From assembly GCF_008923205.2 (NCBI RefSeq), contig NZ_WBMS02000004.1, forward strand, positions 124,001 through 188,000: a stretch of 64,000 bases of DNA, given 5' to 3'. Numbering within the stretch: position 1 is the first letter of the stretch; the number at the start of each line of letters is the position of its first letter. The translations under genes and the position numbers were made by a program. The notes below the pieces were generated by a model. The model was not told the DNA's origin. It searched no databases and saw only the letters and a program-made list of their open reading frames with translations. Source of the DNA: Actinomadura physcomitrii. GTDB lineage: Bacteria > Actinomycetota > Actinomycetes > Streptosporangiales > Streptosporangiaceae. Positions 20,772 to 37,678 of this stretch are shown here, piece after piece.

Positions 20772-21617
20772 TCAAAGGCCCGCGGCGGCGGTCGGGAGGG
20801 CTGTCAGGAGGCGGGGCGGGCGCGGGAGGTCGGGGGTCAGGCGGGTGGTGAGGGCCCGGCGGATGACCGGGACGGCCGTGGTGGGGGCCAGCGCGACGAC
20901 GCAGGCGCCGATCTTGCGGCCGCCGAGGGCGCCGGCGCTCAAGGCGGTGCGGAGGGCTCGGTCGGGAAGCGGGTCGCCGAAGGTGTGGGCGTCGGTGAGG
21001 AGCGGGCCGAGGGCGGACGGGCCGGACGCGCGCAGGGCGGCGGCGGCGCGGGCCGCGGCGCCCGGCGGGGTGGGCAGGGCGGACGAGTGCCGGGCGCCGA
21101 GGTCGACGATCAGGACGCGCAGGTCCGCGGCGGCGAGGTCGAAGGGGATGTGTTCGAGGGTGCGCGGTGTGGTCAGGACGGCGTGGGCGGCGCGGGCGTG
21201 CAGGGCCGTCCGGTAGGCGGGGTGGCCGGTGAGGGGGTGCGGTCCGGCGGGCGGGCCGTGCAGGGCCCGGAGTGCGAGGAAGGTGGCGGCGGCGGTCTCG
21301 GCTCCGGTGAGGAGGCCGGTCTCGGCGGGGAGCTCGCGGTTGATCACCAGGTGGGTGCCGGGGGCGGGGTCGGCGTGGGAGTTCAGCACGGCTGCGGGCT
21401 CCCGGGCCCAGTGCGGGACGGGCCCGGTGAGGGACGCGGCGCCGTCGGTGTGGTGGTTCACCGAGTAGAGCGAGTGGCCCGAGGACGGGCCCGCGGCGAC
21501 GATGGCGCCCCAGGGGACGGCGATGGTGAGGCCGTCCAGGAGCGGCAGGCCGATGAGGGCGCGGTGGATCGCGGTGGGCGGGGAGCCGTGGACGCGTTCG
21601 AAGACGTACGCGGTCAT
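20772..21617 (-). CDS. Degenerate GHMP-kinase (galactokinase)-like protein
   Basis: A 281-aa protein whose layout follows galactokinase/GHMP kinases but with eroded motifs. SVNHHTDGAASLTG stands where galactokinase has the GEHTDYNGG loop, ELPAETGLLTGAETAAATFLAL replaces the phosphate-binding GLSSSA motif, and GALGGRKIGACVVAL replaces the C-terminal GxGGGFGG strand. Key glycines and serines are missing, so catalysis as a normal kinase is doubtful. The ATG follows GGAGA. Last gene of the lipid/polyketide operon; a role in sugar supply for the glycosyltransferase, or a non-catalytic role, is inference. Confidence 0.6.
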   Translation of the reverse strand: MTAYVFERVHGSPPTAIHRALIGLPLLDGLTIAVPWGAIVAAGPSSGHSLYSVNHHTDGAASLTGPVPHWAREPAAVLNSHADPAPGTHLVINRELPAETGLLTGAETAAATFLALRALHGPPAGPHPLTGHPAYRTALHARAAHAVLTTPRTLEHIPFDLAAADLRVLIVDLGARHSSALPTPPGAAARAAAALRASGPSALGPLLTDAHTFGDPLPDRALRTALSAGALGGRKIGACVVALAPTTAVPVIRRALTTRLTPDLPRPPRLLTALPTAAAGL

Positions 21618-21646
21618 GCGGATCTCCGGGGACGTGGTGGGGCCGA

Positions 21647-22408
21647 TCAAGGCTCGTCCTTCCGCGGGCGGCGCGGCAGGGGGCGCGGCCAGGGCGGGAG
21701 GTCCTCGACGAGGGTCCGCCACCACGTGTACGGGGTGAGGGCTGGCCGCAGCAGCGCCGTCCGGTGCAGGTCGCGGGGTGACAGCGGGGTGCCGGCGAAG
21801 ACGAGGTAGGGGACGGCGCAGTAGGCGATGAGGGCGACGGGGCCCCATTGCGGGTCGGCCGCGAGGGCGGCCAGGACGAGCGCCATGGCGAGGATCGAGG
21901 GCACGACGGCCTGCGCGAGGGGGACGCCGAGGCCGTGCAGCCAGGCGGCGCGTCCCTTGTAGGCGGGGGAGCGTGGGGTGAGGTGGCAGGGGACGACGAC
22001 GTGGTCGGTGTCGGCGTCGTGGTGGCGGAGGCGCGCCATGGTGCTCGTGTAGTCGCCCGTGTAGGCGTCGTCCAGGAGTTCGGTGTGGACGACGGCCGCG
22101 AACCCCGCGTCGCGGGTGTGGCGGAGCATGTCGAGGGCGCGGGTGACGGGGAGGTCGGCGGGGATGAGCCCGAGGACGTCCAGGCCGGTGTCGCGGGCGT
22201 GGGCGATGGCGGCGTGCCGGACGTTGGCGGAGATGACGGCGCCGTCGGCGCCGATCACGTCATAGCCGGCGGACTCGCGCAGGCCCTCCCAGCTGAGCGG
22301 GGCGGCGCGGCGGGGCTGCGGGAGCCGGTGGAACCGCGCCAGGCGGCGGCGGAGCCGCATCGCGTCCGCGACGAGGCCCGCCGCCACCAGCGCGGGTACC
22401 GCGATCAC
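21647..22408 (-). CDS. Membrane protein of unknown function in lipid cluster
   Basis: A 253-aa protein. There is a short N-terminal hydrophobic helix, a soluble alpha/beta middle (GADGAVISANVRHAAIAHAR, LGLIPADLPVTRALDMLR, DTDHVVVPCHLTP), and two hydrophobic helices near residues 175-215 (AVVPSILAMALVLAALAA, GPVALIAYCAVPYLVFAG). No family was recognised; the middle vaguely recalls a nucleotide- or lipid-binding fold. The GTG start overlaps the glycosyltransferase stop (GTGA), so it is translationally coupled and probably acts in the same pathway, perhaps at the membrane step. Confidence 0.7.
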   Translation of the reverse strand: MIAVPALVAAGLVADAMRLRRRLARFHRLPQPRRAAPLSWEGLRESAGYDVIGADGAVISANVRHAAIAHARDTGLDVLGLIPADLPVTRALDMLRHTRDAGFAAVVHTELLDDAYTGDYTSTMARLRHHDADTDHVVVPCHLTPRSPAYKGRAAWLHGLGVPLAQAVVPSILAMALVLAALAADPQWGPVALIAYCAVPYLVFAGTPLSPRDLHRTALLRPALTPYTWWRTLVEDLPPWPRPLPRRPRKDEP

Positions 22409-23628
22409 GCCAGCTTCTCCAGGCGGTCGGCGGCCTCGGCGGCGCCGCCGGCGGCGGCGAAGGAGTCCCGGACGGCCTCGGCGGCGGCGCGGTGGGCGGT
22501 GCCGGTGAGGACGGTGGTCAGCGCGTCGCGCAGTTCGGCGGCGCGGACCCGGCCGAACCGGACCTGGACGCCGGCGCCGGCGGCCTCGACCTGCCGGGCG
22601 ATGACCGGCTGGTCGTCCCGGATGGGGGCGACGACCAGCGGCAGGCCCTGCGCGAGGCTCTCGCAGACGGTGTTGTGGCCGCCGTGGCAGATGACGGCGG
22701 ACATCCGCTGCAGCAGCCGCAGCTGCGGGACGTACTCGCGGACGAGGACGTTGGGCGGCGGGTCGTCGAGGGTGCCGGGCGGGGCGACGAAGACGGCCTG
22801 GACGTCCAGGTCGCGGACGGCGTCGGCGGCGACCCGGTAGAACCGTTCGCCGGCGGGCCCGTTGAGGGTGCCGAGGGACAGCAGGACGGCGGGCCGCCCG
22901 TCCAGCCACTCCCACGGGAACGCGGCGCCGGCCGGGCGGTCGAGGGCGGGGCCGACGAACGCGAAGTGGCCGGGGAAGAACGAGGTGTCGCCGACGAGCG
23001 CGCCGGTGGAGAAGATCAGCACGAGGTGGTCGGAGAACCGCAGGTCGAGCAGGTCGTCGATGCCGTGGTCGAGCTGGAAGCCGCCGATCTGGTCGCGGAC
23101 CCAGCGCTCGACGAGCGGCATCCCGGCGAGCGGCCGGGTGAACTCGGCGGAGGTGGTCGCGGAGGTGGCCCACGGGATCTCGCGGTGCCGGGCGGCGACG
23201 GGCGCGGCGAGCACGATCTGGTCGCTGACCACCACGTCCGGGCGGAACCGGTCGAGGGCGGTCTCGACGCCGGGCATCATCGCGTGGCCGAGCGGGACGA
23301 TGAACTCCTCCCACAGGAACCGCAGGGCGGCGGGGCCACGCAGGCGCAGCCACTCCGCGCGGGCGGCGGCGAGCCGCGCGGCGAACGCGTCGTCCTCGGC
23401 GGAGAAGATCCGGGCGCCGGCGCGCAGCAGCGGTTCGAGGGTGGCGCGGTGGCCGGTCCAGGCGACGGTGTGGCCGCGGCGGACGAGTTCGGCGCCGACC
23501 GCGACGGTCGGGTTGATGTGCCCGGCGAGCGGCGGGACGGCGAACAGGAACCGGCGCTTCGGCGTCTCGGCGCGGGGGATGCCGGGCGCGCCGAGCAGGG
23601 ACGGGACCTGGACGCGGCGACCCTTCAC
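22405..23628 (-). CDS. MGT-family (GT1) glycosyltransferase
   Basis: A 407-aa GT-B enzyme. The N-terminal acceptor half starts RFLFAVPPLAGHINPTVAVG, with the His-Ile-Asn motif of macrolide/UDP-glycosyltransferases; the C-terminal donor half has VLLSLGTLNG, the VPQLRLLQRMSAVICHGGHNTVCESL signature and PIRDDQP. It should move a sugar from a nucleotide donor to a hydrophobic acceptor. The GTG start is preceded by GGAGG and overlaps the hydrolase stop. In this operon the acceptor is plausibly the polyketide/lipid product, giving a glycolipid. Confidence 0.9.
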   Translation of the reverse strand: MKGRRVQVPSLLGAPGIPRAETPKRRFLFAVPPLAGHINPTVAVGAELVRRGHTVAWTGHRATLEPLLRAGARIFSAEDDAFAARLAAARAEWLRLRGPAALRFLWEEFIVPLGHAMMPGVETALDRFRPDVVVSDQIVLAAPVAARHREIPWATSATTSAEFTRPLAGMPLVERWVRDQIGGFQLDHGIDDLLDLRFSDHLVLIFSTGALVGDTSFFPGHFAFVGPALDRPAGAAFPWEWLDGRPAVLLSLGTLNGPAGERFYRVAADAVRDLDVQAVFVAPPGTLDDPPPNVLVREYVPQLRLLQRMSAVICHGGHNTVCESLAQGLPLVVAPIRDDQPVIARQVEAAGAGVQVRFGRVRAAELRDALTTVLTGTAHRAAAEAVRDSFAAAGGAAEAADRLEKLA

Positions 23629-24446
23629 CGGGCACCTCCGGCGGCGGCGGCGGGGACGCGGGTGCCCGCGTGGTCGGCCAGCCAGGGCAACATGACCTCC
23701 AGGAGTTCGGCGGTCCCTTCGCGCAGCACGGCGTGGGCGTGGCCGGCCATGACGTGCAGGGTGCAGCCGGGGACGGTGCGCAGCAGCAGCCGCCCCGCGG
23801 CAGCGACGTCGGAGTGCTGCCCGTACACGGCGAGGACGGGGCAGCGGACGGCGGCGAGGTCGGCGGGGCGGACGGGTCCGGTGCGGGCCAGGTCGTCGAG
23901 CAGGGTGGTCCGGTTGACGAGGGCGTCGGCGGCGGCGATCTGCCGGCCGGTCTTGCGCCATCCGGCGGCGAGCAGCTGGTCGGCGAGCCGGTCGTACTCC
24001 AGGCCGAGCGCCCCCGCGGTGAGGGTGTTGAGCAGGCCCTCGGCCCATCCGTCGTGCTCGGCGGGCCCGTACGCCTCGATGAGCACGAGCCCGGCGATCC
24101 GGTCGGGCCGGGCGAGCGCGGCCTTCAGTGCGATGACGCCGCCGAAGCTGTTGGCGACGAGGTGGACGCGGTCGTGGCCGAGCGCGTCGAGGATCCCGAA
24201 CAGGTCGGCGACGGCGTCGTCGGCGCCGTAGCCGTCCGGGGTCAGTTCGGAGCGGCCGTGCCCGCGCAGGTCGTACAGGACGGCGTGCGCGCCGGCGTCG
24301 GCGACGGGCCCGGCGATCGTGTAGTAGAAGCTCGACAGGTTGTCGAGGAGGAGCCCGTGCAGGAACACGGCGACGGGCGCGCCGGGCGCGGGCGGGCCGA
24401 TGGTCTGGACGTGGAAGCGGACGCCGCGGACGGTGACGTCAGGCAT
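23625..24446 (-). CDS. Alpha/beta hydrolase in lipid cluster
   Basis: A 273-aa alpha/beta hydrolase: oxyanion segment VFLHGLLLDN, nucleophile elbow ANSFGG (Ser100), acid in GQHSDVAAAG and catalytic His in MAGHAHAVL. DLRGHGRSE is the usual strand-turn after the oxyanion loop. It overlaps the ACP gene by 8 nt. Likely a thioesterase-like release enzyme or hydrolase that offloads or trims the acyl chain; specificity cannot be deduced. Confidence 0.9.
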   Translation of the reverse strand: MPDVTVRGVRFHVQTIGPPAPGAPVAVFLHGLLLDNLSSFYYTIAGPVADAGAHAVLYDLRGHGRSELTPDGYGADDAVADLFGILDALGHDRVHLVANSFGGVIALKAALARPDRIAGLVLIEAYGPAEHDGWAEGLLNTLTAGALGLEYDRLADQLLAAGWRKTGRQIAAADALVNRTTLLDDLARTGPVRPADLAAVRCPVLAVYGQHSDVAAAGRLLLRTVPGCTLHVMAGHAHAVLREGTAELLEVMLPWLADHAGTRVPAAAAGGAR

Positions 24447-24720
24447 GGGCGGCCTCCGTGGCGGCGATGTGGTCCACCAGGTCGCCGACCGTCAGGCCCA
24501 TGATCTCGTCGATGTCCATGCCGGCGATGAACGCGGCGAGGTCGACGCCGTCGCCGTAGTGGTCGCGCAGCTTGTCGGCGAGGGCGACGAACTCGATGCT
24601 CTCCAGCCCGAGGTCCTCGTTGAACGAGGTGTCGCGGCCGATCTCCACGTCGAGGAGGAAGTCCTCCCCGACGACCTCGGCCAGCATCCGGACGACCTGC
24701 GTCAGGGCGTCGTCGCTCAT
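24439..24720 (-). CDS. Discrete acyl carrier protein
   Basis: A 93-aa ACP: helix I VVRMLAEVVGEDFL, then the phosphopantetheine site LGLESIEF (Ser41) and helix III region LAAFIAGMDIDEIMGLTVGD. It is acidic, as expected. The ATG overlaps the stop of the upstream synthase gene (ATGA), so it is coupled. It could supply starter or extender acyl groups to the two synthases or carry the product to the hydrolase and glycosyltransferase. The phosphopantetheinyl transferase is probably the C-terminal domain of the preceding protein. Confidence 0.93.
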   Translation of the reverse strand: MSDDALTQVVRMLAEVVGEDFLLDVEIGRDTSFNEDLGLESIEFVALADKLRDHYGDGVDLAAFIAGMDIDEIMGLTVGDLVDHIAATEAAHA

Positions 24721-27700
24721 GTTCGGGTCTCCTCCGTGTCGGTTCCGCCCGCCGTGACCGTCCAGGCCACGACGTGTCCGTCCAGCTCGCGCGTCCCGAC
24801 CTCGGTGACCGCGCCGCCGCCGGTGACCAGCAGGTGCTCGGCGTCGGACACGGTGAAGGCGGGTTCGGGGTGGCCGGCGGGAAGGGCCTGCAGGACGGCC
24901 TGCGCGGCGGCGCGGACGCGGGCGTCCGCGCCGCCGGACGCGAGGCCGACGCCCGCGGGCTCGCCGGCGGGCCGTGCCAGCGCGACGCCGAGGTCGGCGT
25001 CGGAGGCGATGGACACGGCCAGGTCCTGGTCGAAGGGTCCGGTGACGGCGTGGTGGGGCCCGGTGCCGTCGCGGACGGTCAGCTCGGCGGGGAACAGGGG
25101 GCCGTGGCCGTTGCGCCACAGCCAGTCCCGGACGGCGTCCTTCGCGGCGATGCGGCCGAGCAGCCACGGGCCCTGCGCGGAGCCGGGGAGCCGCTCGTAG
25201 TCGGCGCGTTCGGCGGCGCACAGGTACTGGCGCATCAGGAGGTCGCGGGAGGCGGCGCCGTCCCAGCGCTTGCGGGCGAGGCACCAGCCGCCGTCCTGCG
25301 GTTCCCCCATGCCGGACACTTCGGGAGTGAACTTCATCCGCCACACGGCCTCATCGGTGTAGAAGCGGTGGGTGGTCCATCCGTCTATGCGCGCCCACAG
25401 GTTCCCGTCTTCGCGGACCATCTCGACGGAGCAGCGCAGCGTGGTGTCCGTGAGGGAGTCTGCCCAGACGGTGGTCTCGAGGCGTTCGCCCGCCGACGGC
25501 GGCGGGCCGTACAGGGCGACTCGTTCGATCCCGACGGGGAAGACGGTCTGGTCCTTCTCCCCGTACACCTGGATCCAGTGGCCGCACAGCTGCCCGGCGC
25601 TGTCGATGAGCGCACCGGGCGTGGGCAGGGACGTCAGGACGCCGCGCACGCCGTCCTCCGCGACCGCGACGATCTCGGTGACGCCGCGGAACAGCGGGCC
25701 GTGGAACATCCACCGCTCCTCGTAGAGCCGCTCGGCCGTGACGACGGGCGGGCCCTCGCCGGTCAGCGGGGTGCGGTCGGGTGGGGACGGGGGGAGGTGG
25801 CGGTCGGCGAGCAGGACCGTCCCGTCGGTGTGGCCCGGGATGACGACCTTGACCCGGCGCGGGCCCTCGGCACCGGTCCCGTCGACGATGTGGGCGCGGA
25901 TGTCGGCGCTGGTCGGCGGGGCCGCCACGACCCACCGGACGGCGCGGACGGCCTCGAACCCGACGACGACCGCGTCCGGCAGCAACTCCCGCGCGGTCGC
26001 GGCCATCACCTCCAGCAGCGTGGCCAGCGGCACGATCGGGAACCGGTCCGACATGTCGGGCCAGCCGGGGGGCTGCGGGAACACGCAGTGGTCCGCGAGG
26101 TAGGGCATCGCCTCCAGCGAGAACACCCGGGTGATCACCAGTTCGTCCGCCGGTCCGCCCGCCGCTTGCCCGGTCGCGGGCGCCGCCCCGCCGCCGCCGA
26201 GCGCCTCCAGGACGGTCTGCGCGCCGGTCGCCGCGTCGTTCAGCAGCGCCTCCAGCTCGGCGAGCACCGGATCGTCCGCGGGCAGCGACGGCACCGGCGC
26301 GCCGCCCGTCCGGATCGGCGGCACGGCCCCGTCCAGCCTGACCAGCGGGGTGCTCAGGTCGAGCCGCATGCCCGCCGACGCGGGCGGCGCCGGGGACGCC
26401 CCGTACCCCTCCGCCCACAGCGCCGCGACGACCCGCCGCAGCTGCGCCATCCCGTCGCGCTTCGGGACGTTCACCGCCATCGCCAGGTGCTCGCGGGCGC
26501 CGAGCCGGTCGCCGACGAACCCCGTCAGGCTCCCCGGCCCGACCTGCACGAACGCCCGCACATGCGCCGTCCCGTACAGCTCCTCGACCAGCTCGCTGAA
26601 CCGCACCGGCTCCAGCAGGTGCCGCGCGACCAGCTCCCGCACCGCGTCCTCGCCGGACGGGAACGGCGCGGCCGTCGTCCCCGACCACACCGGGAAGCGC
26701 GGCGCGCGGACCTCCAGCGCCTCGAACGACGCCTGCACCTGCTTCTCGTACGCCGCCGCCAGCGGCGTGTGGAACCCGCTGCGGAAGGGCAGCTCCCGGC
26801 CGAGGACGCCCTCGGCCGCCAGCCGCTCCAGCACGTCCCGGACGTCGCCCGGCGGTCCGCAGATCACCGACTGGTGCGGACAGTTGTCGTGGCTGACGTA
26901 CAGGCCGGACCGCCCGGCGATCGCCTCCTGCGCCCGGTCCGCGCCGCAGCCGAGCGCCCCGTACAGCACGTCGGGGGCGTCCAGCCCGTCGCGGCCGAGC
27001 GCCCGCACGAACGCGTCCACGGCGGCCGTGTCGTACATCCCCGCGACGATCATCGCGGTCCACTCGCCGAGGCTGTGGCCGGCCGCGACGTCCGGTTCGA
27101 CGCCCAGCTCGGCGAGCGCCGCGGCGAGCAGCCGGCCCACCGCGATGACGTCCGCCGCGTGGCCGAGCAGGTCGGTGCGCCCCGTCGGCTCCGGCTTCGG
27201 CATCCCGAAGTGCTCGGCGACGTCGTCCACGCGCGGCTCGAACGCCGGCTCGAACCCGGGGAACAGGAACGCCAGCCGCCCGCCCTCGGCGAGCAGGGGC
27301 CGCGGGGCGAACCACACGTCGCTGCGCCCCCGCCACGGCGTCCCCCGCTGGACGACCGCCCGCGCCAGGTCCAGCCTGCGCGCGGTCGGCCCCACGACCG
27401 CCACGCGGACCGGCAGGTCCGGCGGGGTCTCCCCCGCGCGCGCGAGCAGCTCCTCGTCGGGCACCGCCAGCAGCGCCGCCAGCTCCTCGGCGGTGCGCGC
27501 CGCCAGCCTCAGCACGCCCTCCTCCGCGGGCGGCGCCTCCAATCTCCGGCGCCTGCGCGCCCGGCCCGCCGGAGGCTCCTCCAGGATCACGTGCGCGTTC
27601 GCGCCCCCGAACCCGAACGCGTTCACCACCGCCCGGCGCGGGCCCTCCGCCGGCCGCGTCCACTCCGCCGCCTCCCGGACGACCCGCAGCCGCCCCCCGT

Positions 27701-28970: not shown

Positions 28971-31900
28971 CGGACCGTCCCGGTGAACACGACCTGCGTC
29001 TCGTCCCCGTGCGCGATCTCCCGCAGCAGCGCCGCGACCCCCGCGTCCGGATCGATCAGCCCTATCCCGCGCCGCGCGTACTCGCGGGCCAGCTCCGGCG
29101 ACACCATCCCGCCGCCCGCCCACGGACCCCAGTCCGCCACCAGCACCCGGCCGCGCAGCCGCGTCCGCCACACGTGCGCGAGCGTGTCGCACGCCTCGTT
29201 CGCCGCCGCGTAGTCCGCCTGCCCCCGGTTCCCGTGGACGCCCGCGACGCTGCCGAACACGACGAAGAACCCCACATCGGGGCGCACCGCCGCCGCCAGC
29301 GCCGACGCGCCGTCCACCTTGGTCCGGTACACCCGCTCGAACGACTGCGGCTCCTTGTCCCGGACGAGCCGGTCCTCCACGATCCCCGCGCCGTGTATCA
29401 CCCCGTCCAGCCGGCCGTGCCGCGCGTACACCCGCTCCACCGCGTCCCGGACCACCCGCGGCTCCCGCACGTCCCCCGCGTGGTAGCGGACCGACGCCGC
29501 GTGCTCCCTCAGCGCGTCCAGATTCGCGCGGATCTCCCGCTCGGCGAGGATCCGCCGCACCGTCGCCTCGATCTCCGCCGGACGCCGTCCGCCCTGCGCG
29601 ACCAGCGCCCGCCGCAGGCCCGCCTCGTCCGGGACGTCGGGGAACGACGCCGGGCCCACCGGCTCCAGCGTCCGCCCCATCACCTCGATGTGGCAGCCCG
29701 TCGTCCGCGCCAGCTCCAGCGCCGCCCGCGCGGTGACGCCCCGCGCGCCCCCGGTCAGCAGGACGACGCCGTCCCGCTCCAGCGGCACCCGCGCCTCGCC
29801 CCGCAGCTCCGCCGGCACCAGCCGGATCGTGTGCCGCAGCTCCCCCTCATGCCCGACCACCACGGGGCCCCGGGCGTCCAGCAGCTCGGCCAGGATCCGC
29901 AGCGCGATCGCGCGCGGCGTGTCCTTGGTGTCCACGTCCACCGCCCTGACCAGGGTGTCCGGATACTCCTGCGCGACCGTCCGGGCCAGCCCGCGCAGCC
30001 CCGCGCCCGGCCCCGGGTCGCCGACCCCGCCGCCGTCGAACGCCCGCCCGAACGTCCCTCCGGCCCCGCTCGCCACGACCAGCCACCGCAGCCCGCCCGC
30101 CAGCGCCCGGCGGATGCCGGTGTAGGCGTCCGGCAGCACCGCCGTGGCGCCCGGCCGCAGCGCCGCCAGATGCACCAGGCCGTCGCACTTCCCGTCGACG
30201 TCCATCGGCGTCCGCACCCGGGCCCCGTGCCGTTCCAGCAGGTCCGCGAGCTCCAGCGCGACCCCGCACCCGTCGTCCACCACCACGATCGTCCGGCCGT
30301 CGAACGCCGTCCCGGTGTCGTCCGGGACCGGCAGCGCCTCCAGCTCCGCCGTCCGCACCACCTGCCGGACGACCCGCCGGGCCCGCTCGCCCGACGGCCG
30401 GACCCGTCCGGCCAGCACCCTGCGCGCCCCGCCCGCCTGGTCGGACGGCACGGGCGGCGCGGGCGTCCCGCCGCGCGCGAACGGCTCCGCCTGGGCGTCC
30501 TCCCCGCCGAGCGCGGCGACCCCGTCCCCGGCGAGCCGCACGATCTCCACGGCCGCATCCCCCACCGACCGCCGCCCGGCGGCAGCGGCACCGGCCGATG
30601 TCTGCGCCGGGGTGCCCGCACGTGTGTCGCCATCGCCTTCCGCCACGCGGGACGACGTCGCGTGCGTGGTCTCTTCGGCGGTGCTCGCCGCGCTCTGCGG
30701 TGGCCCGCTCGGCGGCTCTTCACGCCGCGCATCGGGCGGCGTCTGCGCAGGTGGGTCCGCGCCTGCGTCGTCCTTGTCCTCGGTCGTGTCCGGCGACGTC
30801 GCGGGCTGTTCGACCGTCGTCGTCGCCGCGGTCGGCGGGTGCTCTGCTGTGCCGGCCGTCTCGGCCGATGGTCCTTGCGCGAGGAGCGGGGTCGCCTGGG
30901 GCGGGACGGCGGGGCGCTGCGGGCCGGTGGCCGACGGGAGGCGGGCACTGAGCCAGTCGACGATCTCGCCGATCGTGGTGATGCGGGTGAGCTGCTCGAT
31001 GGCGGCGTCCGGGGCGGTGAGGCCGGTGCGCTCGGTGACCTCGCCGATGATGACGGTGCGCTTGATGGAGTCGATCGACAGGTCGGCCTCGAGGTCGAGG
31101 TCGCCGTCCAGCATGGACTCGGGGTAGCCGGTGCGGGCGCTGATGACCGCCAGGACGGTGGCGCGGACGTCGCGGGGCGGTTCCGGCGCGGCGGGCAGGG
31201 CGGGAAGGGTCTCGCCGGGCAGGACGGGACGCGGCGCGGGGACGGGCGCCGGGGCGGGCAGGGCGGCGGGCGCGGCGCCGAGATGGCGCAGGATGACCTC
31301 GCGCTGCGCGGCGATCAGGTCGCGGCCGGCGCGCAGGTACTCCAGGACGGCGGCGTCGGAGCCGGCGGGCCGGTCGGGCCCCGCGCCGGCGGCGGGCACG
31401 CGCTCGGCGGGGCGGAGGCCGCCGGGCGGGTAGCCGCCGTCGGCGGTGCGGACGAGGTGGCCGTTGACGATCCAGCCGGGCGCGGCCGGATCGGACGCGG
31501 GGTCGAGGACGCGGGCGTCGCGGCCCGCGAACAGCGGCAGCGGGTCGACGGGGACACCGGCGGCGGCGAGTTCGGCGAGGGCGTGCAGGAGGCGCTCGAC
31601 AGAGCCGCCGACGGAGCCGCCCTCCGCGGCGTCGCAGGCGACGGCGGTGTGCGGCCGGTCGCCGAGGATGCGGCGGGTGAGGCCGGTGAGGACGCGTCCC
31701 GGCCCGGCTTCGACGAAGGTGCGGGCGCCCGCCTCGTACATCGCCTCGACCTGCTCGACGAACCGGACGGGCGCGGCGAGCTGCCCGGCGAGGGTCGCGG
31801 CGAGGTCGGCGGGGTCGCTGTCGTAGGGCGCGGCGGTGGTGTTGGACCAGACGGGGAACGCGGGCGAGCGCAGGTCGCGGCCGGTGAGGGCGGTGCGGAG

Positions 31901-34900
31901 GGCGCCGGAGGCGGCGGCGACGAGGGGGCTGTGGAAGGCGCAGGCGACCGGGATGCGCTCTGCGGCGAGGCCGCGTTCGGCGAGGACGGCGAGCGCGCGG
32001 GCGACGCCGGCGGTGGTGCCGGACACGACGACCTGGTCGGGCGCGTTGTGGTTGGCGACGACGATTTCGGAGAGGCCGGCGACGGCGTCCTTGACCCGCC
32101 CGAGCGGCGCGGCGACCGCGGCCATGGTGCCGGGGTCGGTGCCGGCGGCGGCGAGGATCGCCTCGGCGCGGGCGGCGCTGAGCTCGATCATGTCGGTGTC
32201 GTCGAAGACGCCGGCGGCGCACAGCGCGACGAGCTCGCCGTAGCTGTGCCCGGCGGCGAGGTCGGGATGCACGCCGACGGCGGTGAGCAGGCGGTGGACG
32301 GCGAGGCCGGCGATGCCGAGGGCGGGCTGCGCGACGCGGGTGTCGGTGAGCGCCTCGCGCTGCCGGCGGGCGTCGTCGGGGCCGAACGCGGCGGGCGGGA
32401 ACATCGCGGGCGCGTAGCGTCCGCCGGCGAGACGCAGCAGGCGCTGCAGGCGGGGGAAGGCGACGAAGAGGCCGGCGAGCATGCCGGGCCGCTGGCTGCC
32501 CTGGCCGGGGAACAGGAACGCGACCTGCCCGGGATCGCCCGGGGCGCGGACGCGGACGCCGGGTTCCGCACGGAACTCGGCGGCGGCGGCGAGCTTGCCG
32601 CGCAGGTCGTCGAGGCTCGTGGCGACGACGGCGGCCTGGACGCGTCCTTCGGCGGACGCGCAGGTCCGCGCGAGGTCGCGCAGCCGGACGGAACCCGCGT
32701 CCAGCAGCCGCCGGAGCCGGGCGATCTCGGCGCGCGCGGCGGTGCGGTCGGCGCCGCGGATCAGGAACAGCTCGGCGGGCCATTCGGCGAGGCCGGACAC
32801 CGGTTCGGGGCCGCCGTCGTAGCCGGCGAGGACGGCGTGGAAGTTGGCGCCGCCGAAGCCGAAGCCGCTGACGCCGGCGTACCGGTCGCCGGGGCGGGCG
32901 GCCCAGGGCCGCGCGGACGTCCCGAACGCGAACGGCCCGTCCGCCTTCCATCCGGCGTTCGGGCTGGTGAGGTGCAGGGTGCCGGGGAGGACGCCGGTGT
33001 GCAGCGCGTACGCGGTCTTGATCAGGCCGGCCAGCCCGGCGGCGCACTTGGTGTGCCCGATCTGCGACTTGACCGAGCCGAGGGCGACCGAGCCGGGCGC
33101 GGCGGCGGCGAACGCGACGGTGAGGGTGGCGAGCTCGGTGCGGTCGCCGACCTCGGTGCCGGTGCCGTGCGCCTCGACGAGCCCGACGTCGGACGGGCGG
33201 ACGCCGGCGCGCTCGTAGGCGCGGTCGAGGGCGAGCCGCTGCCCTTCGGCGCGGGGCGCGGTGAGGCCGAGGGAGCGGCCGTCGCTGGATCCGGCGACGG
33301 ACTTGACGACGGCGTAGACGCGGTCGCCGTCGCGTTCGGCGTCGGCGAGGCGCTTGAGCACGACGCAGGCGACGCCCTCGCCGAGCGCGATGCCGTCGGC
33401 GGCGGCGTCGAACGGGGCGCAGCGGCCGGACGGCGACAGCGCGCGGACGGCGGAGAACATCAGGTAGTCCTGGATGCCGTTGTGGACGTCGGCGCCGCCG
33501 CACAGGACCATGTCGCTGCTCCCGGCGGCGAGTTCCTTGCAGGCGGTGTCGAGCGCGGCGAGGGACGAGGCGCAGGCGGCGTCGACGGTGCAGTTGGCGC
33601 CGCCGAGGTCGAGCCGGTTGGCGATGCGTCCGGCGATGACGTTGGTGAGGACGCCGGGGAAGGAGTCCTCGGTGGGCTCGGGGAGCTGCTCGTCCAGGCC
33701 GGGCGGGACCTCGCCGTAGTAGGACGGCAGGGCGGCGCGCAGCCCGTAGGCGGTGGCGAGCTCGTTGCCGCCTCCGGCGCCGAAGAACACCGACGTGCGG
33801 GACCGGTCGAACGGGCGGTCGGCGTATCCGGCGTCCTTCAGCGCGCGCGCCGCGACCTCCAAGGCGAGGAGCTGGACGGGCTCGATGCTGCCGAGCGCGC
33901 TCGGCGGGATGCCGTAGGCGAGCGCGTCGAACGGGACGTCCGGCAGGAACCCGCCCCATTTCGACGGGGTCTTGCCGGGGTCGGACGGGTCGTAGTGGAC
34001 GGCCGGGTCCCACCGCCCGGCGGGCACCTCGGTGACGGAGTCGACGCCGCCGACGATGTTCGCCCAGTAGGCGTCGGCGTCGCGGGCGCCGGGGAACACG
34101 CAGCCGACACCGACGATCGCGATGTCGGCAGGACGGGCGGCGCCGGACGCGGCGCCGGACGCGGCGCTGGACGCGGCGCTGGACACGGCGCCGGACGCGG
34201 CGCTGGACACGGCGCCGGACGCGGCACCGGACGCGGCACCGGACGCGGCGCCGGACGCGGCGCTGGACGCGGCGGCCCGGTCCCCGGCGATGCCAAGATC
34301 GGCGGCGCGCGCGGCGAGCAGTGCGGTGGCACCGTCGGTGACCTGTCCGTGCAGGTCGGCGAGCGTGGTCGTGGAGGTGCGCAGCGCCGCGACGTCCCCG
34401 ATCATGTAGAGGCCCTCGGCGTGCTGCTCGTCCGGCCCGACGGGGGTGGAGCGGCGCAGGCCCTTGCTGGCGATGCGCAGCCGGCCGAGGTTGAGGCGTT
34501 CGAGCTGCCGCCACATGTCCTGCCGGGCCGTCCCGGCGTCCTCCAGTTCGCGGCGCGCCTCGGTGAACCTCTCGACGTAGGGGGTGCGGGCGCAGCGGGT
34601 CGCGTGGCCGGGCGAGGTCTCCAGCAGCGCCGTCCCGTCGCACTCGAGGGCGGCCTTCTGGAAGCCGGGCAGGATCGCGCCCGCCGCGACGGCCTCGGCG
34701 GTGAACAGGTAGGCGGTGCCCATCAGGACGCGGACGCCGGCGCCGCGTTCGGCCAGCGGGCCGGCGAGCGCGGCGACCATCGCGGCGGACCGCGCGTCGT
34801 GGATCCCGCCGGCGAACATCACCGACAGCTCGGCGGGGTCGCCGCCGAACGCCTCGAGCCGCTCGATCTGCGCCTCCCACAGCGGGAAGCTCGCGCGCGG

Positions 34901-36325
34901 CCCGACGTGCCCGCCGCACTCCCGCCCCTCGAAGACGAACTTGCGGGCGCCCTCGGCGAGGAACCGCTCCAGCAGGTCCGGCGACGGGACGTGCAGGTAC
35001 GCGCTGACGCCCGCGTCCTCCAGCGCCGCCGCCTGCGCGGGCCGCCCGCCGGACACGATCGCGTACGGGGGCGCGGCCTCGCGGACCGCGGCGAGCTGCG
35101 CCTCGCGGACCTCCGGCGGCGCGAACCCGAGCACACCGACGCCCCAGGCGCGGCCCGCGAGCCGGTCCGCGGTCTCGCGCAGCAGCGCCCGCACCCGGTC
35201 GCCGTCCATCAGCGCGAGCGCCAGGAACGGCAGCCCGCCCTCCTGCGCGACGGCCGCGGCGAACGTCGAACGGTCGCTGACCTGCGTCATCGGCCCCTGG
35301 ACGACCGGGAACTCGGGGCCGTCCGGGGTCTGCCGGGACGCCAGCGGCGCGGCCCGCACGGCGGCCCGCAGATGCTCGGCGATCCCGTCCCGGACCGCCT
35401 GGACGACGCCGCCGGCGGTGCGGTGCCGGGCGGCGAGCGCGGCGGCGAGCGGCGCGTCCTGCCCGGCGGGCAGCAGCCGCGACCGCAGCCCGGTCGCGCC
35501 GATCCGCGCGCCGACCTCGGCCGGGGTGAGGCCGGCGAGGGCGATGTCGGGCAGGCCGGGGCGGGCGTAGACGCGGTGGCCGTGCACGACGCGGGTCTCC
35601 GAGCCGTCCATCGCGGTGAGCGCCGCGGCGACGTCGGCGGGCAGGTCCATCTCGCGGACGAGCGCGAGCTGCACGTCCAGCACGACGCCCGCCGCTCCCC
35701 CGGCGACGGCCGCGGCGGCGGTGCGCGGGCCGATGCCGCCGGCGGCGAGCACCGGGACGTCCACGGCGCCGTCCGCGAGCAGCCGCTGCAGCAGCACGAA
35801 CGTGGTGAGGTCACCGACCCGGCCGCCCGCCTCGCAGCCGCGGGCGATGAGCGCGGTCCCGCGCGTGCCGGGGAACCCGCCGGCGACGGGCAGCACCGCG
35901 GCGGCCTCGGCGGCGTCCACGACCTCGACCAGCAGCCGGCGGCCGCGCGCGAACCCGGCGATGTCCAGCGAGTCGTCGGCGAGCAGCGCCGGGGCGTCGA
36001 ACACGACGGTGCCGGCGGCGTCCGGCAGCTCCTGCGGGCGGACCCGGCAGCCCGCCGGGACCCGCACCCCGAACGGGCCCGCCCACCAGCGGCGCACGTC
36101 GGCGAGCGCGGCGAGCGCCGGCTCCCGGTCGGTGCCGAGGTCGAGCACGCCGAGCCCGCCGGCCCGCGCGACGGCCACCGCGAGGTGCGGCGCGGGGCGG
36201 CCGAACGGCGTGACGCCGACGATCTCGGTCCCCCGCCCGGCCCCCGGCGCCCGCCGGTCCGGGCCGTCCTGGACGGCGGCCCTCGTCTCGTCCCCGTCCG
36301 CCGCCGTGCCCCTGTCCGCGGCCAT
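28967..36325 (-). CDS. PUFA/PKS-type synthase: NPD-NPD-KS-AT-ACP-KR
   Basis: A 2452-aa enzyme. Two nitropropane-dioxygenase/PfaD-like flavin domains come first (~20-300 and ~330-650; the second keeps VVQGPMTQVSD and GRECGGHVGP), normally the trans enoyl reductase of PUFA synthases. After a repetitive Ala/Ser/Gly linker comes a ketosynthase (~733-1170: Cys918, His1053, His1091), then an acyltransferase (~1265-1560: FLFPGQGSQRPG, Ser1361 in GHSYGE). One ACP follows (Ser1753 in LSIDSIKR, the PUFA-type signature), a long disordered linker, and a ketoreductase (LLTGGARGVTA near 2185, Tyr2372 in ADYAAANEACD). It matches PfaA with PfaD fused to its front, as in the SCO0127-type orphan cluster. First gene of the operon; GGGGGG precedes the ATG. 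Confidence 0.93.
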   Translation of the reverse strand: MAADRGTAADGDETRAAVQDGPDRRAPGAGRGTEIVGVTPFGRPAPHLAVAVARAGGLGVLDLGTDREPALAALADVRRWWAGPFGVRVPAGCRVRPQELPDAAGTVVFDAPALLADDSLDIAGFARGRRLLVEVVDAAEAAAVLPVAGGFPGTRGTALIARGCEAGGRVGDLTTFVLLQRLLADGAVDVPVLAAGGIGPRTAAAAVAGGAAGVVLDVQLALVREMDLPADVAAALTAMDGSETRVVHGHRVYARPGLPDIALAGLTPAEVGARIGATGLRSRLLPAGQDAPLAAALAARHRTAGGVVQAVRDGIAEHLRAAVRAAPLASRQTPDGPEFPVVQGPMTQVSDRSTFAAAVAQEGGLPFLALALMDGDRVRALLRETADRLAGRAWGVGVLGFAPPEVREAQLAAVREAAPPYAIVSGGRPAQAAALEDAGVSAYLHVPSPDLLERFLAEGARKFVFEGRECGGHVGPRASFPLWEAQIERLEAFGGDPAELSVMFAGGIHDARSAAMVAALAGPLAERGAGVRVLMGTAYLFTAEAVAAGAILPGFQKAALECDGTALLETSPGHATRCARTPYVERFTEARRELEDAGTARQDMWRQLERLNLGRLRIASKGLRRSTPVGPDEQHAEGLYMIGDVAALRTSTTTLADLHGQVTDGATALLAARAADLGIAGDRAAASSAASGAASGAASGAASGAVSSAASGAVSSAASSAASGAASGAARPADIAIVGVGCVFPGARDADAYWANIVGGVDSVTEVPAGRWDPAVHYDPSDPGKTPSKWGGFLPDVPFDALAYGIPPSALGSIEPVQLLALEVAARALKDAGYADRPFDRSRTSVFFGAGGGNELATAYGLRAALPSYYGEVPPGLDEQLPEPTEDSFPGVLTNVIAGRIANRLDLGGANCTVDAACASSLAALDTACKELAAGSSDMVLCGGADVHNGIQDYLMFSAVRALSPSGRCAPFDAAADGIALGEGVACVVLKRLADAERDGDRVYAVVKSVAGSSDGRSLGLTAPRAEGQRLALDRAYERAGVRPSDVGLVEAHGTGTEVGDRTELATLTVAFAAAAPGSVALGSVKSQIGHTKCAAGLAGLIKTAYALHTGVLPGTLHLTSPNAGWKADGPFAFGTSARPWAARPGDRYAGVSGFGFGGANFHAVLAGYDGGPEPVSGLAEWPAELFLIRGADRTAARAEIARLRRLLDAGSVRLRDLARTCASAEGRVQAAVVATSLDDLRGKLAAAAEFRAEPGVRVRAPGDPGQVAFLFPGQGSQRPGMLAGLFVAFPRLQRLLRLAGGRYAPAMFPPAAFGPDDARRQREALTDTRVAQPALGIAGLAVHRLLTAVGVHPDLAAGHSYGELVALCAAGVFDDTDMIELSAARAEAILAAAGTDPGTMAAVAAPLGRVKDAVAGLSEIVVANHNAPDQVVVSGTTAGVARALAVLAERGLAAERIPVACAFHSPLVAAASGALRTALTGRDLRSPAFPVWSNTTAAPYDSDPADLAATLAGQLAAPVRFVEQVEAMYEAGARTFVEAGPGRVLTGLTRRILGDRPHTAVACDAAEGGSVGGSVERLLHALAELAAAGVPVDPLPLFAGRDARVLDPASDPAAPGWIVNGHLVRTADGGYPPGGLRPAERVPAAGAGPDRPAGSDAAVLEYLRAGRDLIAAQREVILRHLGAAPAALPAPAPVPAPRPVLPGETLPALPAAPEPPRDVRATVLAVISARTGYPESMLDGDLDLEADLSIDSIKRTVIIGEVTERTGLTAPDAAIEQLTRITTIGEIVDWLSARLPSATGPQRPAVPPQATPLLAQGPSAETAGTAEHPPTAATTTVEQPATSPDTTEDKDDAGADPPAQTPPDARREEPPSGPPQSAASTAEETTHATSSRVAEGDGDTRAGTPAQTSAGAAAAGRRSVGDAAVEIVRLAGDGVAALGGEDAQAEPFARGGTPAPPVPSDQAGGARRVLAGRVRPSGERARRVVRQVVRTAELEALPVPDDTGTAFDGRTIVVVDDGCGVALELADLLERHGARVRTPMDVDGKCDGLVHLAALRPGATAVLPDAYTGIRRALAGGLRWLVVASGAGGTFGRAFDGGGVGDPGPGAGLRGLARTVAQEYPDTLVRAVDVDTKDTPRAIALRILAELLDARGPVVVGHEGELRHTIRLVPAELRGEARVPLERDGVVLLTGGARGVTARAALELARTTGCHIEVMGRTLEPVGPASFPDVPDEAGLRRALVAQGGRRPAEIEATVRRILAEREIRANLDALREHAASVRYHAGDVREPRVVRDAVERVYARHGRLDGVIHGAGIVEDRLVRDKEPQSFERVYRTKVDGASALAAAVRPDVGFFVVFGSVAGVHGNRGQADYAAANEACDTLAHVWRTRLRGRVLVADWGPWAGGGMVSPELAREYARRGIGLIDPDAGVAALLREIAHGDETQVVFTGTVR
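34141..34272. repeat. Eleven 12-bp tandem repeats in the NPD-KS linker
   Basis: Eleven consecutive 12-bp units of consensus CGCCGGACGCGG (variants CGCTGG and CACCGG at the front, ACACGG at the end) encode alternating SGAA/SSAA/SGAV blocks of the inter-domain linker. It is a hypervariable-looking minisatellite in coding sequence. Confidence 0.92.
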
Positions 36326-36550
36326 GCACTGCCCCCCGACGCGTCCCGCGCGGCCCGACCCGGCGACCGCGCGGCTGGTGACCCTCGCTCACAACAACGG
36401 TCGGCAGACTACGGTCCGTGAGCGGTCGAGCACGGGGACGACACACCCGGGGGGTGCGCTGATGGCGGCACCGCAAAGGACTTTGGACGCTTCCTTGGCC
36501 TGCGCAAGACCCGCCGCCGGTGCGACCGGGCGGTCAGCGGGCGGGGGCGG

Positions 36551-37678
36551 TCACACCGTGACGGCGGGCCCGCGGCGCTGCCGGCGGATCCCGTGCCGGA
36601 CCGTTCCCTCGTCCAGCCAGCGGTCCAGGTACGCCCATGTGGTCGCGCGCGCGGACCGTCCGGTCAGCACGTCGAGGTGGCCCCCCGACGCGACCTCGAA
36701 CCGCACCTTCGGCGCGCCGGGCAGCAGCCGGATCAGCGGCAGGACGGACCGGACCGGCGCGACGGCGTCGCCGCGCCCGGCGATGGCCAGAACCGGCACG
36801 CCGATCCGGCGCAGCTCGACCCGCCGGCCGTCGATCTCGAGGCCGCCCGCGGCGAGCGCGTTGTCCTGGAAAATGGCGCGCTGAATGCGTCGCGCGGCGT
36901 TCCCCGTGAATCCGGTGACGGTGCCGGTGAATTGTTCGACGGCTTCGATCTGGGCGAGGAAATCGGCATTGTCGAGATGGGTCAGCGTCCGATAGGGCCG
37001 GAGCAGGACGCGATCGATTCCGGTCGCCCGGCGGAGGCGTTCCAGCACCGCGCCGGGACGGGGCGCGGGCAGCCGCACGGGCAGCCGCACGGGCGACCGC
37101 GGCGGGCGGACGTCGACAGGCGCGGCGATCGCGGCGACCGACGCGATCGGCAAGGCCGGGTCGTCGGCGGCGGCGAGCAGCGCCACCACCCCGCCGAGGG
37201 ACCAGCCGACGAGCTGCACGGGCTGCCCGCCCGCGTCCCGGCTGACCGCGCGGATCGCGCCGGGCAGCAGGTCGCGGACCCATTCGCGCAGGCCGCCGTC
37301 CCGCCCGCCGCGGCCAGCGGAGCGCGCGGAATCGGCGGGGTCGCGGTCGAGCAGGTAGCTGCGCCGGCCCGCGCGCACGACGTGCTCGGCGAGGCTGCAC
37401 CCGCGGCGCAGGTCGTAGCAGCGGGCCGGCGCGGCGGGCGGCGGCACGAACAGCACCGGCGGGCCGGCCGGGACCACGCCCTCCGGCGGCCGGTAGCGGC
37501 GCACCCCGCACCTGTCTCCGCCGCCCTCCACCGGATCGGCGGGCATCGGCCGCAGATCGGCGATCCGGCCGTGCCGGGCGAGCTGGACGGCATTGGCGGC
37601 GGCATCGCGCGCGCCTCGCGGGGAGAGGATCAATGCGCCATTATCCAACCGTCCTGACAGAGCACGGCGCGGGCCCAT
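36551..37678 (-). CDS. PHA-synthase-like alpha/beta hydrolase
   Basis: A 375-aa protein with the layout of class III PhaC-like proteins: PVLFVPPPAAPARCYDLRRG, SLAEHVVRAGRRSYLLDRDP, nucleophile elbow VGWSLGGV (Ser160 where true PHA synthases use Cys), Asp in GRGDAVAP, and His in SGGHLDVLTG. The Ser nucleophile argues for a lipase, esterase or acyltransferase rather than a polymerase. It lies 225 bp upstream of the synthase operon on the same strand and may belong to the same lipid pathway. Confidence 0.85.
   Translation of the reverse strand: MGPRRALSGRLDNGALILSPRGARDAAANAVQLARHGRIADLRPMPADPVEGGGDRCGVRRYRPPEGVVPAGPPVLFVPPPAAPARCYDLRRGCSLAEHVVRAGRRSYLLDRDPADSARSAGRGGRDGGLREWVRDLLPGAIRAVSRDAGGQPVQLVGWSLGGVVALLAAADDPALPIASVAAIAAPVDVRPPRSPVRLPVRLPAPRPGAVLERLRRATGIDRVLLRPYRTLTHLDNADFLAQIEAVEQFTGTVTGFTGNAARRIQRAIFQDNALAAGGLEIDGRRVELRRIGVPVLAIAGRGDAVAPVRSVLPLIRLLPGAPKVRFEVASGGHLDVLTGRSARATTWAYLDRWLDEGTVRHGIRRQRRGPAVTV

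What the first reader, a model, noticed from the sequence alone, without database searches (positions are those of the whole stretch)
20772..37678. Self-contained PUFA-synthase-like operon with glycosyltransferase: a candidate glycolipid or polyene pathway
Seven genes on one strand are linked by 4-8 nt overlaps, apart from the last (29-bp gap): NPD-NPD-KS-AT-ACP-KR, KS-AT-DH-PPTase, free ACP, hydrolase, MGT glycosyltransferase, membrane protein and GHMP-like protein. The domain set equals a bacterial PUFA synthase rearranged into two proteins, like the orphan SCO0126/SCO0127-type synthases of Streptomyces whose product is, as far as I know, not established. The added glycosyltransferase, membrane protein and PhaC-like hydrolase suggest the acyl product is glycosylated and membrane-bound. 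That combination is not one I can match to a described pathway.
Basis: partly seen in the sequence, partly recalled or inferred. Interest (0 to 1): 0.8.

Follow-up and report, generated by a model that had tools for sequence, protein, structure and literature searches.

The report
Actinomadura glycolipid-type fatty-chain synthase operon
This Actinomadura genome carries a seven-gene unit, found in 57 of 65 genomes of its genus that were searched and scattered through other actinobacteria, which likely builds a long fatty chain and would attach a sugar to it; in many sister species its first giant enzyme has lost its catalytic residues while the gene stayed open and in frame.

Summary
In detail: seven overlapping genes (20772-36325, minus strand) encode NPD-NPD-KS-AT-ACP-KR, KS-AT-DH-(degenerate PPTase), ACP, alpha/beta hydrolase, GT1 glycosyltransferase, a membrane protein and a galactokinase-fold protein. 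The 29-bp gap is a start-codon choice; a TTG start gives a 4-nt overlap. The glycosyltransferase is a core part: in 62 of 62 relatives whose downstream stretch is held, and in 8 of 9 carriers among 396 sampled actinobacterial genomes (the ninth has a sulfotransferase gene there). Best reading: a two-protein, PUFA-synthase-related iterative synthase whose product is probably glycosylated; I found no product in print. It is not a PUFA synthase by domain content (no CLF, no FabA-like DH pair, one ACP) and not the SCO0126/0127 (Type L) layout. The GHMP-like protein is a pseudo-galactokinase; the membrane protein is probably a GT-A-like remnant lacking its relatives' methyltransferase half. Unexpected: in 23 of 45 Actinomadura operons with a readable first synthase, its KS cysteine and KR tyrosine are gone, nearly always the AT serine too, yet these 1789-2782-codon genes stay in frame (dN/dS about 0.4), while the second KS keeps its triad. 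The window copy has intact KS, AT, ACP, KR and DH sites.

The parts
28967..36325 (-). Synthase 1 (2452 aa): NPD1-NPD2-KS1-AT1-ACP-KR, PfaA-like
   Evidence: Pfam NMO, ketoacyl-synt, Acyl_transf_1, PP-binding, KR; TIGR02813 PfaA 895 bits, cut-off 1010; KS1 C-H-H, AT1 S/H, ACP S, KR S/Y/N intact in the window copy
24717..28970 (-). Synthase 2 (1417 aa): KS2-AT2-DH-degenerate PPTase-like end
   Evidence: Pfam ketoacyl-synt, Acyl_transf_1, PS-DH; KS2 C-H-H, AT2 S/H, DH H/D intact; PPTase H->S, D->G, E->A against relatives
24439..24720 (-). Free acyl carrier protein (93 aa)
   Evidence: PP-binding match (longer frame given); Ser in 67 of 67 sequences aligned, window included
23625..24446 (-). Alpha/beta hydrolase (273 aa), probable chain-release or editing enzyme
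   Evidence: Abhydrolase_1/_6; nucleophile Ser in 66 of 68 aligned; present in 21 of 22 genus operons that kept KS1 Cys (window included) and in 2 of 23 that lost it
22405..23628 (-). GT1/MGT-type glycosyltransferase (407 aa)
   Evidence: EryCIII-like_C, UDPGT and TIGR01426 MGT 187 bits, below cut-off 260, both on a longer frame; closest solved chains are GT1-type enzymes such as oleandomycin glycosyltransferase and YjiC
21647..22408 (-). Membrane protein (253 aa): probable GT-A-like plus TM remnant; many relatives carry a fused zinc-ribbon SAM methyltransferase half (about 600 aa in all) that is missing here
20772..21650 (-). GHMP/galactokinase-fold pseudokinase (292 aa from TTG 21650; 281 aa from ATG 21617)
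36551..37678 (-). Accessory upstream alpha/beta hydrolase (PhaC-like, but Ser lipase box GWSLGG); not in all relatives
   Evidence: TIGR01836 63.7 bits against cut-off 365; sequence

Best explanation
The operon encodes a two-protein iterative synthase related to PUFA synthases, which likely builds a long acyl chain that would then be glycosylated by the operon's own GT1 glycosyltransferase to give a glycolipid-type compound. Shown by sequence: gene order, overlaps, domain order, intact catalytic residues of KS1, AT1, ACP, KR, KS2, AT2 and DH, and conservation of the glycosyltransferase with both synthases. Inferred: synthase 1 (loading, condensation, ketoreduction, NPD-type enoyl reduction) and synthase 2 (second condensation site, dehydration) work as one complex; because the DH is a PKS-type domain and not the FabA-like pair of PfaC, no trans-to-cis isomerisation is expected, so the chain would be saturated or an all-trans polyene, possibly hydroxylated; the free ACP and the hydrolase handle release; GT1 adds the head group. 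The pseudo-galactokinase would bind a sugar or nucleotide, or act as a regulator or subunit, rather than phosphorylate; the membrane protein would tether the assembly. Another PPTase of the cell would have to prime the ACPs.
For: Domains. Active-site table. GT present in 62 of 62 relatives with 4 kb held after synthase 2 (78 of 80 in all; the two misses have under 200 bases after it) and synthase 1 in 80 of 80. Sample of 396 actinobacterial genomes: 9 carry synthase 2, own genome included; GT in 8 of 9, the ninth with a sulfotransferase gene at that place, which fits a polar-head-group step. 57 of 65 genomes of the genus carry it. Hydrolase and pseudo-galactokinase are mostly lost where synthase 1 lost KS1 Cys: hydrolase present in 21 of 22 against 2 of 23, pseudo-galactokinase in 20 of 22 against 1 of 23 (window counted), so they probably serve the same product. 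One PF01648 PPTase elsewhere in the genome.
Against: I found no reported product, expression or chemistry. MGT-family glycosyltransferases more often act on macrolides and aromatic polyketides (recalled), so a diffusible glycosylated polyketide remains possible. GT1 acceptor and donor are unpredicted. The KS tree did not resolve the nearest clade of known product. The GT-A reading of the membrane protein rests on a Z in the range that unrelated folds can reach, and Foldseek alone had no hit below E 0.001. The co-loss has only 4 phylogenetically independent pairs, too few for significance. The GT itself lacks one or both motif histidines in 14 of 23 operons without KS1 Cys.
Confidence: 0.6

Rival explanations
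1. The operon makes a diffusible glycosylated polyene or reduced polyketide (an antibiotic-like secondary metabolite), not a membrane glycolipid.
For: The GT belongs to the macrolide (MGT) type; PKS-type DH; many relatives add a SAM methyltransferase; patchy distribution, 9 of 396 sampled genomes.
Against: Present in 57 of 65 genus genomes, unlike most antibiotic clusters (recalled); no exporter or regulator among the seven genes by Pfam (two of the seven had no Pfam hit); synthase 1 is closest to PfaA among NCBIfam models.
Confidence: 0.27
2. A PUFA (EPA/DHA-like) synthase for membrane phospholipids, as the SCO0126-0127 type has been annotated.
For: TIGR02813 PfaA is the best NCBIfam model for synthase 1; one study assigns eicosapentaenoic acid to SCO0126-0127-like clusters by similarity (PMC5932044, one passage).
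Against: No CLF, no FabA-like DH pair, one ACP, below the PfaA cut-off; a GT in 62 of 62 testable relatives. [quoted passage not shown] coelicolor (passage).
Confidence: 0.03
3. For the sister species: the synthase 1 genes without catalytic residues are simply decaying, kept open only because stops are rare at about 74% G+C and because they sit ahead of synthase 2 in a coupled operon.
For: Most replacements can be reached by changes towards G+C (Cys or Ser to Gly; Tyr to His, Asp, Cys; own reading, codons not counted); constraint is weaker than in intact copies (dN/dS 0.41 against 0.31); the GT lacks one or both motif histidines in 14 of 23; one genus locus (L172) is in pieces and synthase 2 of L132 is called in two.
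Against: No low-identity (frame-shifted) stretch in 23 of 23 aligned genes although the other two frames hold medians of 24 and 7 stops; 84.7% of the cells at KS1 positions invariant in intact copies are kept; dN/dS 0.21-0.61 in the 236 KS1-AT1 pairs counted.
Confidence: 0.35

Closest known systems
Pfa (PUFA) synthases, Type A/B pfaABCDE
   Same: KS-AT-ACP-KR protein plus a second KS protein with dehydratase, an NPD-type ER and a PPTase-like domain; TIGR02813 is the best NCBIfam model for synthase 1; KS2 aligns over its whole length to the solved KS 6riw 'ORF10' (that this is Moritella PfaC is recalled)
   Different: ER fused as two NPD domains to synthase 1, one ACP there, no CLF, one PS-DH instead of a FabA-like DH pair, AT2 between KS2 and DH, PPTase end degenerate, linked GT
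Type L secondary lipid synthase of S. coelicolor (SCO0126-0127)
   Same: Actinobacterial orphan of the same broad class (PMC3098273, passages)
   Different: Described as fused KS-CLF-DH2-AT with a separate pfaD at the 5' end; here KS-AT-DH with NPDs fused to the PfaA-like protein
Type M secondary lipid synthases (Frankia, Actinosynnema, S. avermitilis, Renibacterium)
   Same: Actinobacterial, product unknown; the PPTase motif hShxH reported for Types M-T fits relatives here whose PPTase end is intact
   Different: Type M domain layout is only in a figure that I could not see; identity not tested
Heterocyst glycolipid (hgl) islands of cyanobacteria
   Same: PUFA-synthase-like genes with a linked glycosyltransferase that adds the glucose head group in the last step (HglT; PMC11804610, passages)
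   Different: Different gene content; no reductase gene of the hgl type is seen among these seven (the HglB reductase is recalled); orthology of the GTs not tested
t1pks-2 of Actinomadura sp. K4S16
   Same: Same operon family: KS/AT/KR plus KS/AT proteins on contig 18, product 'unpredictable' (PMC7256010, passages; locus L018)
   Different: K4S16 carries the form without KS1 Cys, AT1 Ser, internal ACP Ser, free ACP and hydrolase

Membership tests
PUFA (Pfa) synthase | PfaA-type protein KS-MAT-ACP-KR | tested here: met
   Domain order in synthase 1; TIGR02813 895 bits, below its 1010 cut-off
PUFA (Pfa) synthase | Several tandem ACP domains | tested here: not met
   One PP-binding stretch in synthase 1; the distant relative L112 shows three
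PUFA (Pfa) synthase | PfaC with KS-CLF and two FabA-like DH domains | tested here: not met
   Synthase 2: one ketoacyl-synt stretch, one PS-DH, no FabA-type DH
PUFA (Pfa) synthase | PfaD-type enoyl reductase | tested here: met
   NMO/NPD stretches fused to synthase 1; GGH motif in NPD2, GGR in NPD1
PUFA (Pfa) synthase | Product is a PUFA | not testable with these tools
   No chemistry
Type L (SCO0126-0127) | Fused KS-CLF-DH2-AT protein, pfaD as separate 5' gene | tested here: not met
   against the definition read
Type M | Type M domain layout and KS clade | not tested
   Figure not held; no named Type M sequence fetched
Heterocyst glycolipid pathway | Glycosyltransferase linked to a PUFA-like synthase | tested here: met
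   GT in 62 of 62 testable relatives
Heterocyst glycolipid pathway | hgl gene set and orthologous HglT | not tested
   No hgl reference sequence was fetched
Enediyne PKS | KS-AT-ACP-KR-DH-PPTase in one protein with a paired thioesterase | tested here: not met
   Two proteins with two KSs; a separate 1920-aa PKS followed by a short thioesterase-like gene lies elsewhere in the genome (L113; enediyne and thioesterase labels are own reading)
Galactokinase (enzyme) | Galactokinase fold | tested here: met
Galactokinase (enzyme) | Sugar/ATP motifs GEHTDYN, GLSSSA and catalytic Asp segment | tested here: not met
   Missing or replaced in the family alignment; roles of the motifs recalled
PHA synthase (gene 36551-37678) | Cys nucleophile in the lipase box | tested here: not met
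   GWSLGG in the translation; TIGR01836 63.7 of 365 bits; that PhaC uses Cys is recalled

The most novel reading that the evidence does not exclude
A 2,000-residue iterative synthase is turned, independently some nine or more times within one genus, into a non-catalytic scaffold: Actinomadura species erase the KS cysteine, AT serine, ACP serine and KR tyrosine of synthase 1, mostly drop the release hydrolase and the pseudo-galactokinase, but keep the huge protein under purifying selection as the structural, chain-length-factor-like partner of the still active second KS. The window species holds the ancestral, active form, so the genus is a natural series from working megasynthase to pseudo-megasynthase.
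Probability: 0.4. Interest if true: 0.82.

Novelty: new variant of a known kind. Interest (0 to 1): 0.64.

Why it matters
It points to a lipid or lipid-like glycoside encoded in 57 of 65 Actinomadura genomes searched and in scattered other actinobacteria, by a compact seven-gene unit that could be moved whole into a laboratory host. The repeated loss of catalytic residues in synthase 1 with preserved reading frame and intact KS2 offers a natural experiment on which parts of an iterative megasynthase must work and which only need to be present. Dead KS partners are known inside such systems (chain length factors), but serial conversion of a whole multidomain synthase is not something I found described (open-access searches, of which only one search was aimed at pseudoenzymes).

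Tried and rejected
PUFA synthase proper and the SCO0126/0127 type: rejected on domain content. Enediyne PKS: rejected, two proteins and a separate candidate elsewhere. PHA synthesis: rejected, Ser nucleophile. A madurose (3-O-methylgalactose) link between the galactokinase-fold protein, the methyltransferase half and the genus's diagnostic sugar (recalled) was considered and dropped: the family also occurs in Streptomyces and Pseudonocardiales, the kinase motifs are gone, and the window protein lacks the methyltransferase; the one paper listed was not opened.

KS phylogeny: KS1 is one clade (99/99), KS2 one side of a branch with weak support (65/81); their place relative to the solved PfaC-type KS, the enediyne-like KS and modular KSs was unresolved, with very long branches; only 2 of 6 own-genome modular KS loci gave usable rows. 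No HglE, PfaA, SCO0127 or Type M sequence was included. Foldseek alone gave no hit below E 0.001 for the membrane protein. The protein search for the galactokinase-fold family (186 hits, 120 listed) returned many Streptomyces proteins named galactokinase; the Streptomyces members lack the motifs.

Of the two misses, L145 ends 2.2 kb after synthase 2. Hydrolase, ACP and GT counts were unchanged. The independent-pairs test was run before this correction and was not repeated; it had 4 pairs and could not reach 0.05.

Rows dropped: of 57 genus loci (56 fetched plus the window), 12 have no readable KS1 because the contig ends or the gene is in pieces, leaving 45. In one search pairs with dS outside 0.05-0.8 were dropped (236 of 253 kept for KS1-AT1 in the set without KS1 Cys, 190 of 190 in the intact set); dS by Nei-Gojobori is not corrected for codon bias, and pairs are not independent. 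The tree is a quick single-protein tree; 9 of 59 inner branches are weak, so the counts of 9 and 11 loss events are approximate; supported branches force 6 changes of the label. L106 of the phylum sample is the same record as L064 of the 80 loci (100% identity).

Papers: PMC3098273 passages and sections 5 (first of three parts) and 8; PMC5932044, PMC13291983, PMC8396431, PMC11804610, PMC12837462, PMC7256010, PMC9120177 passages only; all others search listings.
Full report
WHAT IS THERE. The window lies in a 9,998,048-base genome of 110 contigs; its nearest named relatives by synthase 2 are Actinomadura species at 91-93% identity. On the minus strand, 36325 down to 20772, seven genes follow one another: synthase 1 (2452 aa), synthase 2 (1417 aa), ACP (93 aa), alpha/beta hydrolase (273 aa), glycosyltransferase (407 aa), membrane protein (253 aa) and a galactokinase-fold protein (281-292 aa). 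Neighbours overlap by 4-8 nt; the apparent 29-bp gap before the last gene disappears with the TTG start at 21650 (TTGA overlap). A PhaC-like hydrolase gene lies 225 bp upstream (36551-37678).

DOMAINS. Pfam and NCBIfam give NPD-NPD-KS-AT-ACP-KR for synthase 1 and KS-AT-DH for synthase 2. TIGR02813 (PfaA) is the best NCBIfam model for synthase 1, 895 bits against a cut-off of 1010. Synthase 2 has one KS, no CLF, one PKS-type DH (PS-DH) and a C-terminal PPTase-like end that Pfam does not recognise; the three motif residues H, D and E are together in part of the relatives (H in 36, D in 34, E in 32 of 77 aligned) but are S, G and A in the window. One PF01648 PPTase was found elsewhere in the genome. 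Against solved chains, KS2 aligns over its full length to 6riw 'ORF10' (216.5 bits for the domain); the label PfaC of Moritella is recalled.

CONSERVATION. A scan of a collection of 84,980 species genomes found 548 stretches encoding relatives of synthase 2; only the best 80 loci were returned and examined. Synthase 1 is next to it in 80 of 80; the GT in 78 of 80 and in 62 of 62 loci with at least 4 kb after synthase 2; free ACP 69 of 80; hydrolase 61 of 80; the membrane protein 35 and the galactokinase-fold protein 26 of 80 by single-sequence tblastn, or 45 and 33 by protein clustering with the window counted. Record titles include Actinomadura, Streptomyces, Kibdelosporangium, Lentzea, Amycolatopsis and Rhodococcus. 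In a sample of 396 Actinomycetota genomes drawn without regard to this gene, 9 including the own genome match the synthase 2 end. The other 8 loci hold both synthases (one fused frame in L107), ACP and hydrolase, and 7 of 8 the GT; the eighth (L112) has a sulfotransferase gene instead. In the genus, 57 of 65 genomes match.

AN UNEXPECTED PATTERN IN THE GENUS. I fetched 56 further Actinomadura loci and aligned the proteins. Of 45 with a readable KS1 (window included), 22 keep the KS1 Cys and 23 do not: 20 Gly, 2 Ala, 1 Arg, in five of them with a small deletion beside the site. In those 23: KR Tyr 0 of 23, AT1 Ser 1 of 22 with a letter, internal ACP Ser 2 of 23 (one of them, L157, in a stretch that hardly aligns; in 15 the position is deleted), NPD2 His 11 of 23, AT2 Ser 7 of 22; but KS2 Cys 22 of 22, KS2 His 22 of 22 and 23 of 23, DH His 22 of 23, DH Asp 19 of 23, free ACP Ser 10 of 10 where the gene exists. 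The missing KS2 row is L132, whose synthase 2 is called in two pieces. The 20 fully intact operons have all these residues (19 of 19 for KR; one lacks the stretch). No low-identity window was found in any of the 23 synthase 1 alignments (poorly aligned linker left out), so the frame is kept. Cells at positions invariant in intact copies are kept at 84.7% in KS1 and 98.5% in KS2. Pairwise dN/dS for KS1-AT1 is 0.41 (median) against 0.31 in intact copies; for KS2 0.27 against 0.23. On a synthase 2 tree these operons form 9 (KS1 Cys) to 11 (any of KS1 Cys, AT1 Ser, KR Tyr) separate groups if residues are never regained. L118, sister to the window, has lost AT1 Ser and hydrolase Ser but keeps KS1 Cys and KR Tyr; L159, sister to an intact operon, keeps KS1 Cys but has lost AT1 Ser, KR Tyr, AT2 Ser and the hydrolase gene. 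Outside Actinomadura 33 of 34 synthase 1 sequences have KS1 Cys, AT1 Ser and KR Tyr; the other lacks the KS stretch. The GT gene is present in 45 of 45, but one or both motif histidines are lost in 14 of the 23 (counted from the table), so GT activity may be gone in part of these.

CO-LOSS. Hydrolase present: 21 of 22 with KS1 Cys, 2 of 23 without. Galactokinase-fold gene: 20 of 22 against 1 of 23 (one search corrects). Free ACP: 22 of 22 against 10 of 23. Membrane protein: 13 of 22 against 1 of 23. Four of the stretches with KS1 Cys, and none without, end less than 5 kb after synthase 2, which works against the contrast. Phylogenetically independent pairs number only 4; the losses never went the other way, but the test cannot reach 0.05 (before the correction).

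MECHANISM. The simplest reading is one iterative complex of two proteins that builds and partly reduces an acyl chain, a release step, and glycosylation by GT1. The PKS-type DH argues against the cis-isomerising chemistry of PUFA synthases. The sulfotransferase in L112 and WS/DGAT acyltransferase genes near the operon in L105 and L110 fit an amphiphilic product. These are inferences; nothing chemical has been measured.

LITERATURE. Shulse and Allen 2011 define Types A-T of such synthases; Types H, L, M and Q, which have actinobacterial members, are listed without characterised product (PMC3098273, passages and two sections). The K4S16 genome paper lists this locus as t1pks-2, two PKSs KS/AT/KR and KS/AT, product not predictable (PMC7256010, passages; matched to L018 by contig number and strain). 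A 2026 survey of hybrid PUFA-like clusters treats other architectures in the passages I saw (PMC13291983). antiSMASH tables name hglE-KS regions in Actinomadura coerulea (4% match to hexacosalactone A; PMC12837462) and Lentzea (PMC9120177); I did not show that these are this operon. I found no description of this gene set or of the pseudo-synthase pattern; the searches are those, in an open-access library only.

VERDICT. A real, conserved, uncharacterised and probably glycoside-forming variant of the secondary lipid synthases, with a repeated history of catalytic erasure in its first synthase within the genus. The window copy has intact KS, AT, ACP, KR and DH sites.

Noticed in passing
window 38163-39842 (+) and 39877-40329 (+): Divergent neighbour is a RelA/SpoT-type protein (HD_4, RelA_SpoT, TGS) followed by a universal stress protein; the RelA-like family has 21 members in the clustering, window included, so a ppGpp link to regulation is conceivable.
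   Followed up: partly
window 29009-36421 (+): A 2470-aa open frame runs antisense to synthase 1; it is probably a shadow of G+C-rich codon structure, as it was not chosen by coding statistics.
   Followed up: partly
L112:12107-13069: In one distant carrier a sulfotransferase gene stands where the GT is elsewhere, and synthase 1 there has three ACP repeats.
   Followed up: partly
L105:2080-3480, L110:3164-6078: WS/DGAT acyltransferase genes lie near the operon in two distant carriers.
   Followed up: partly
L113:9785-15978 (own genome, contig 27): A 1920-aa single-KS PKS followed by a short thioesterase-like gene, looks like an enediyne-type PKS (own reading, not tested).
   Followed up: no
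L118 (sister of the window): AT1 Ser and hydrolase Ser are both Gly while KS1 Cys and KR Tyr remain: perhaps an early stage of the erasure seen elsewhere.
   Followed up: partly
L172; L132: Synthase genes in several pieces in one genus genome, synthase 2 in two pieces in another; decay or assembly error not decided.
   Followed up: no
window 19174-19785, 20403-20759 (+): A WXG100-domain protein and a small unnamed protein stand convergent to the operon end; the small one clusters with 3 further sequences.
   Followed up: no
G029:C3:206723-207610, G465:C8:344455-345375, G452:C38:3228-4040: Three of 65 genus genomes hold a second, divergent copy of the synthase 2 end (47-50% identity).
   Followed up: no
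L072: The record titled Rhodococcus rhodnii carries an operon very like that of Kibdelosporangium records; mislabelling or transfer not tested.
   Followed up: no
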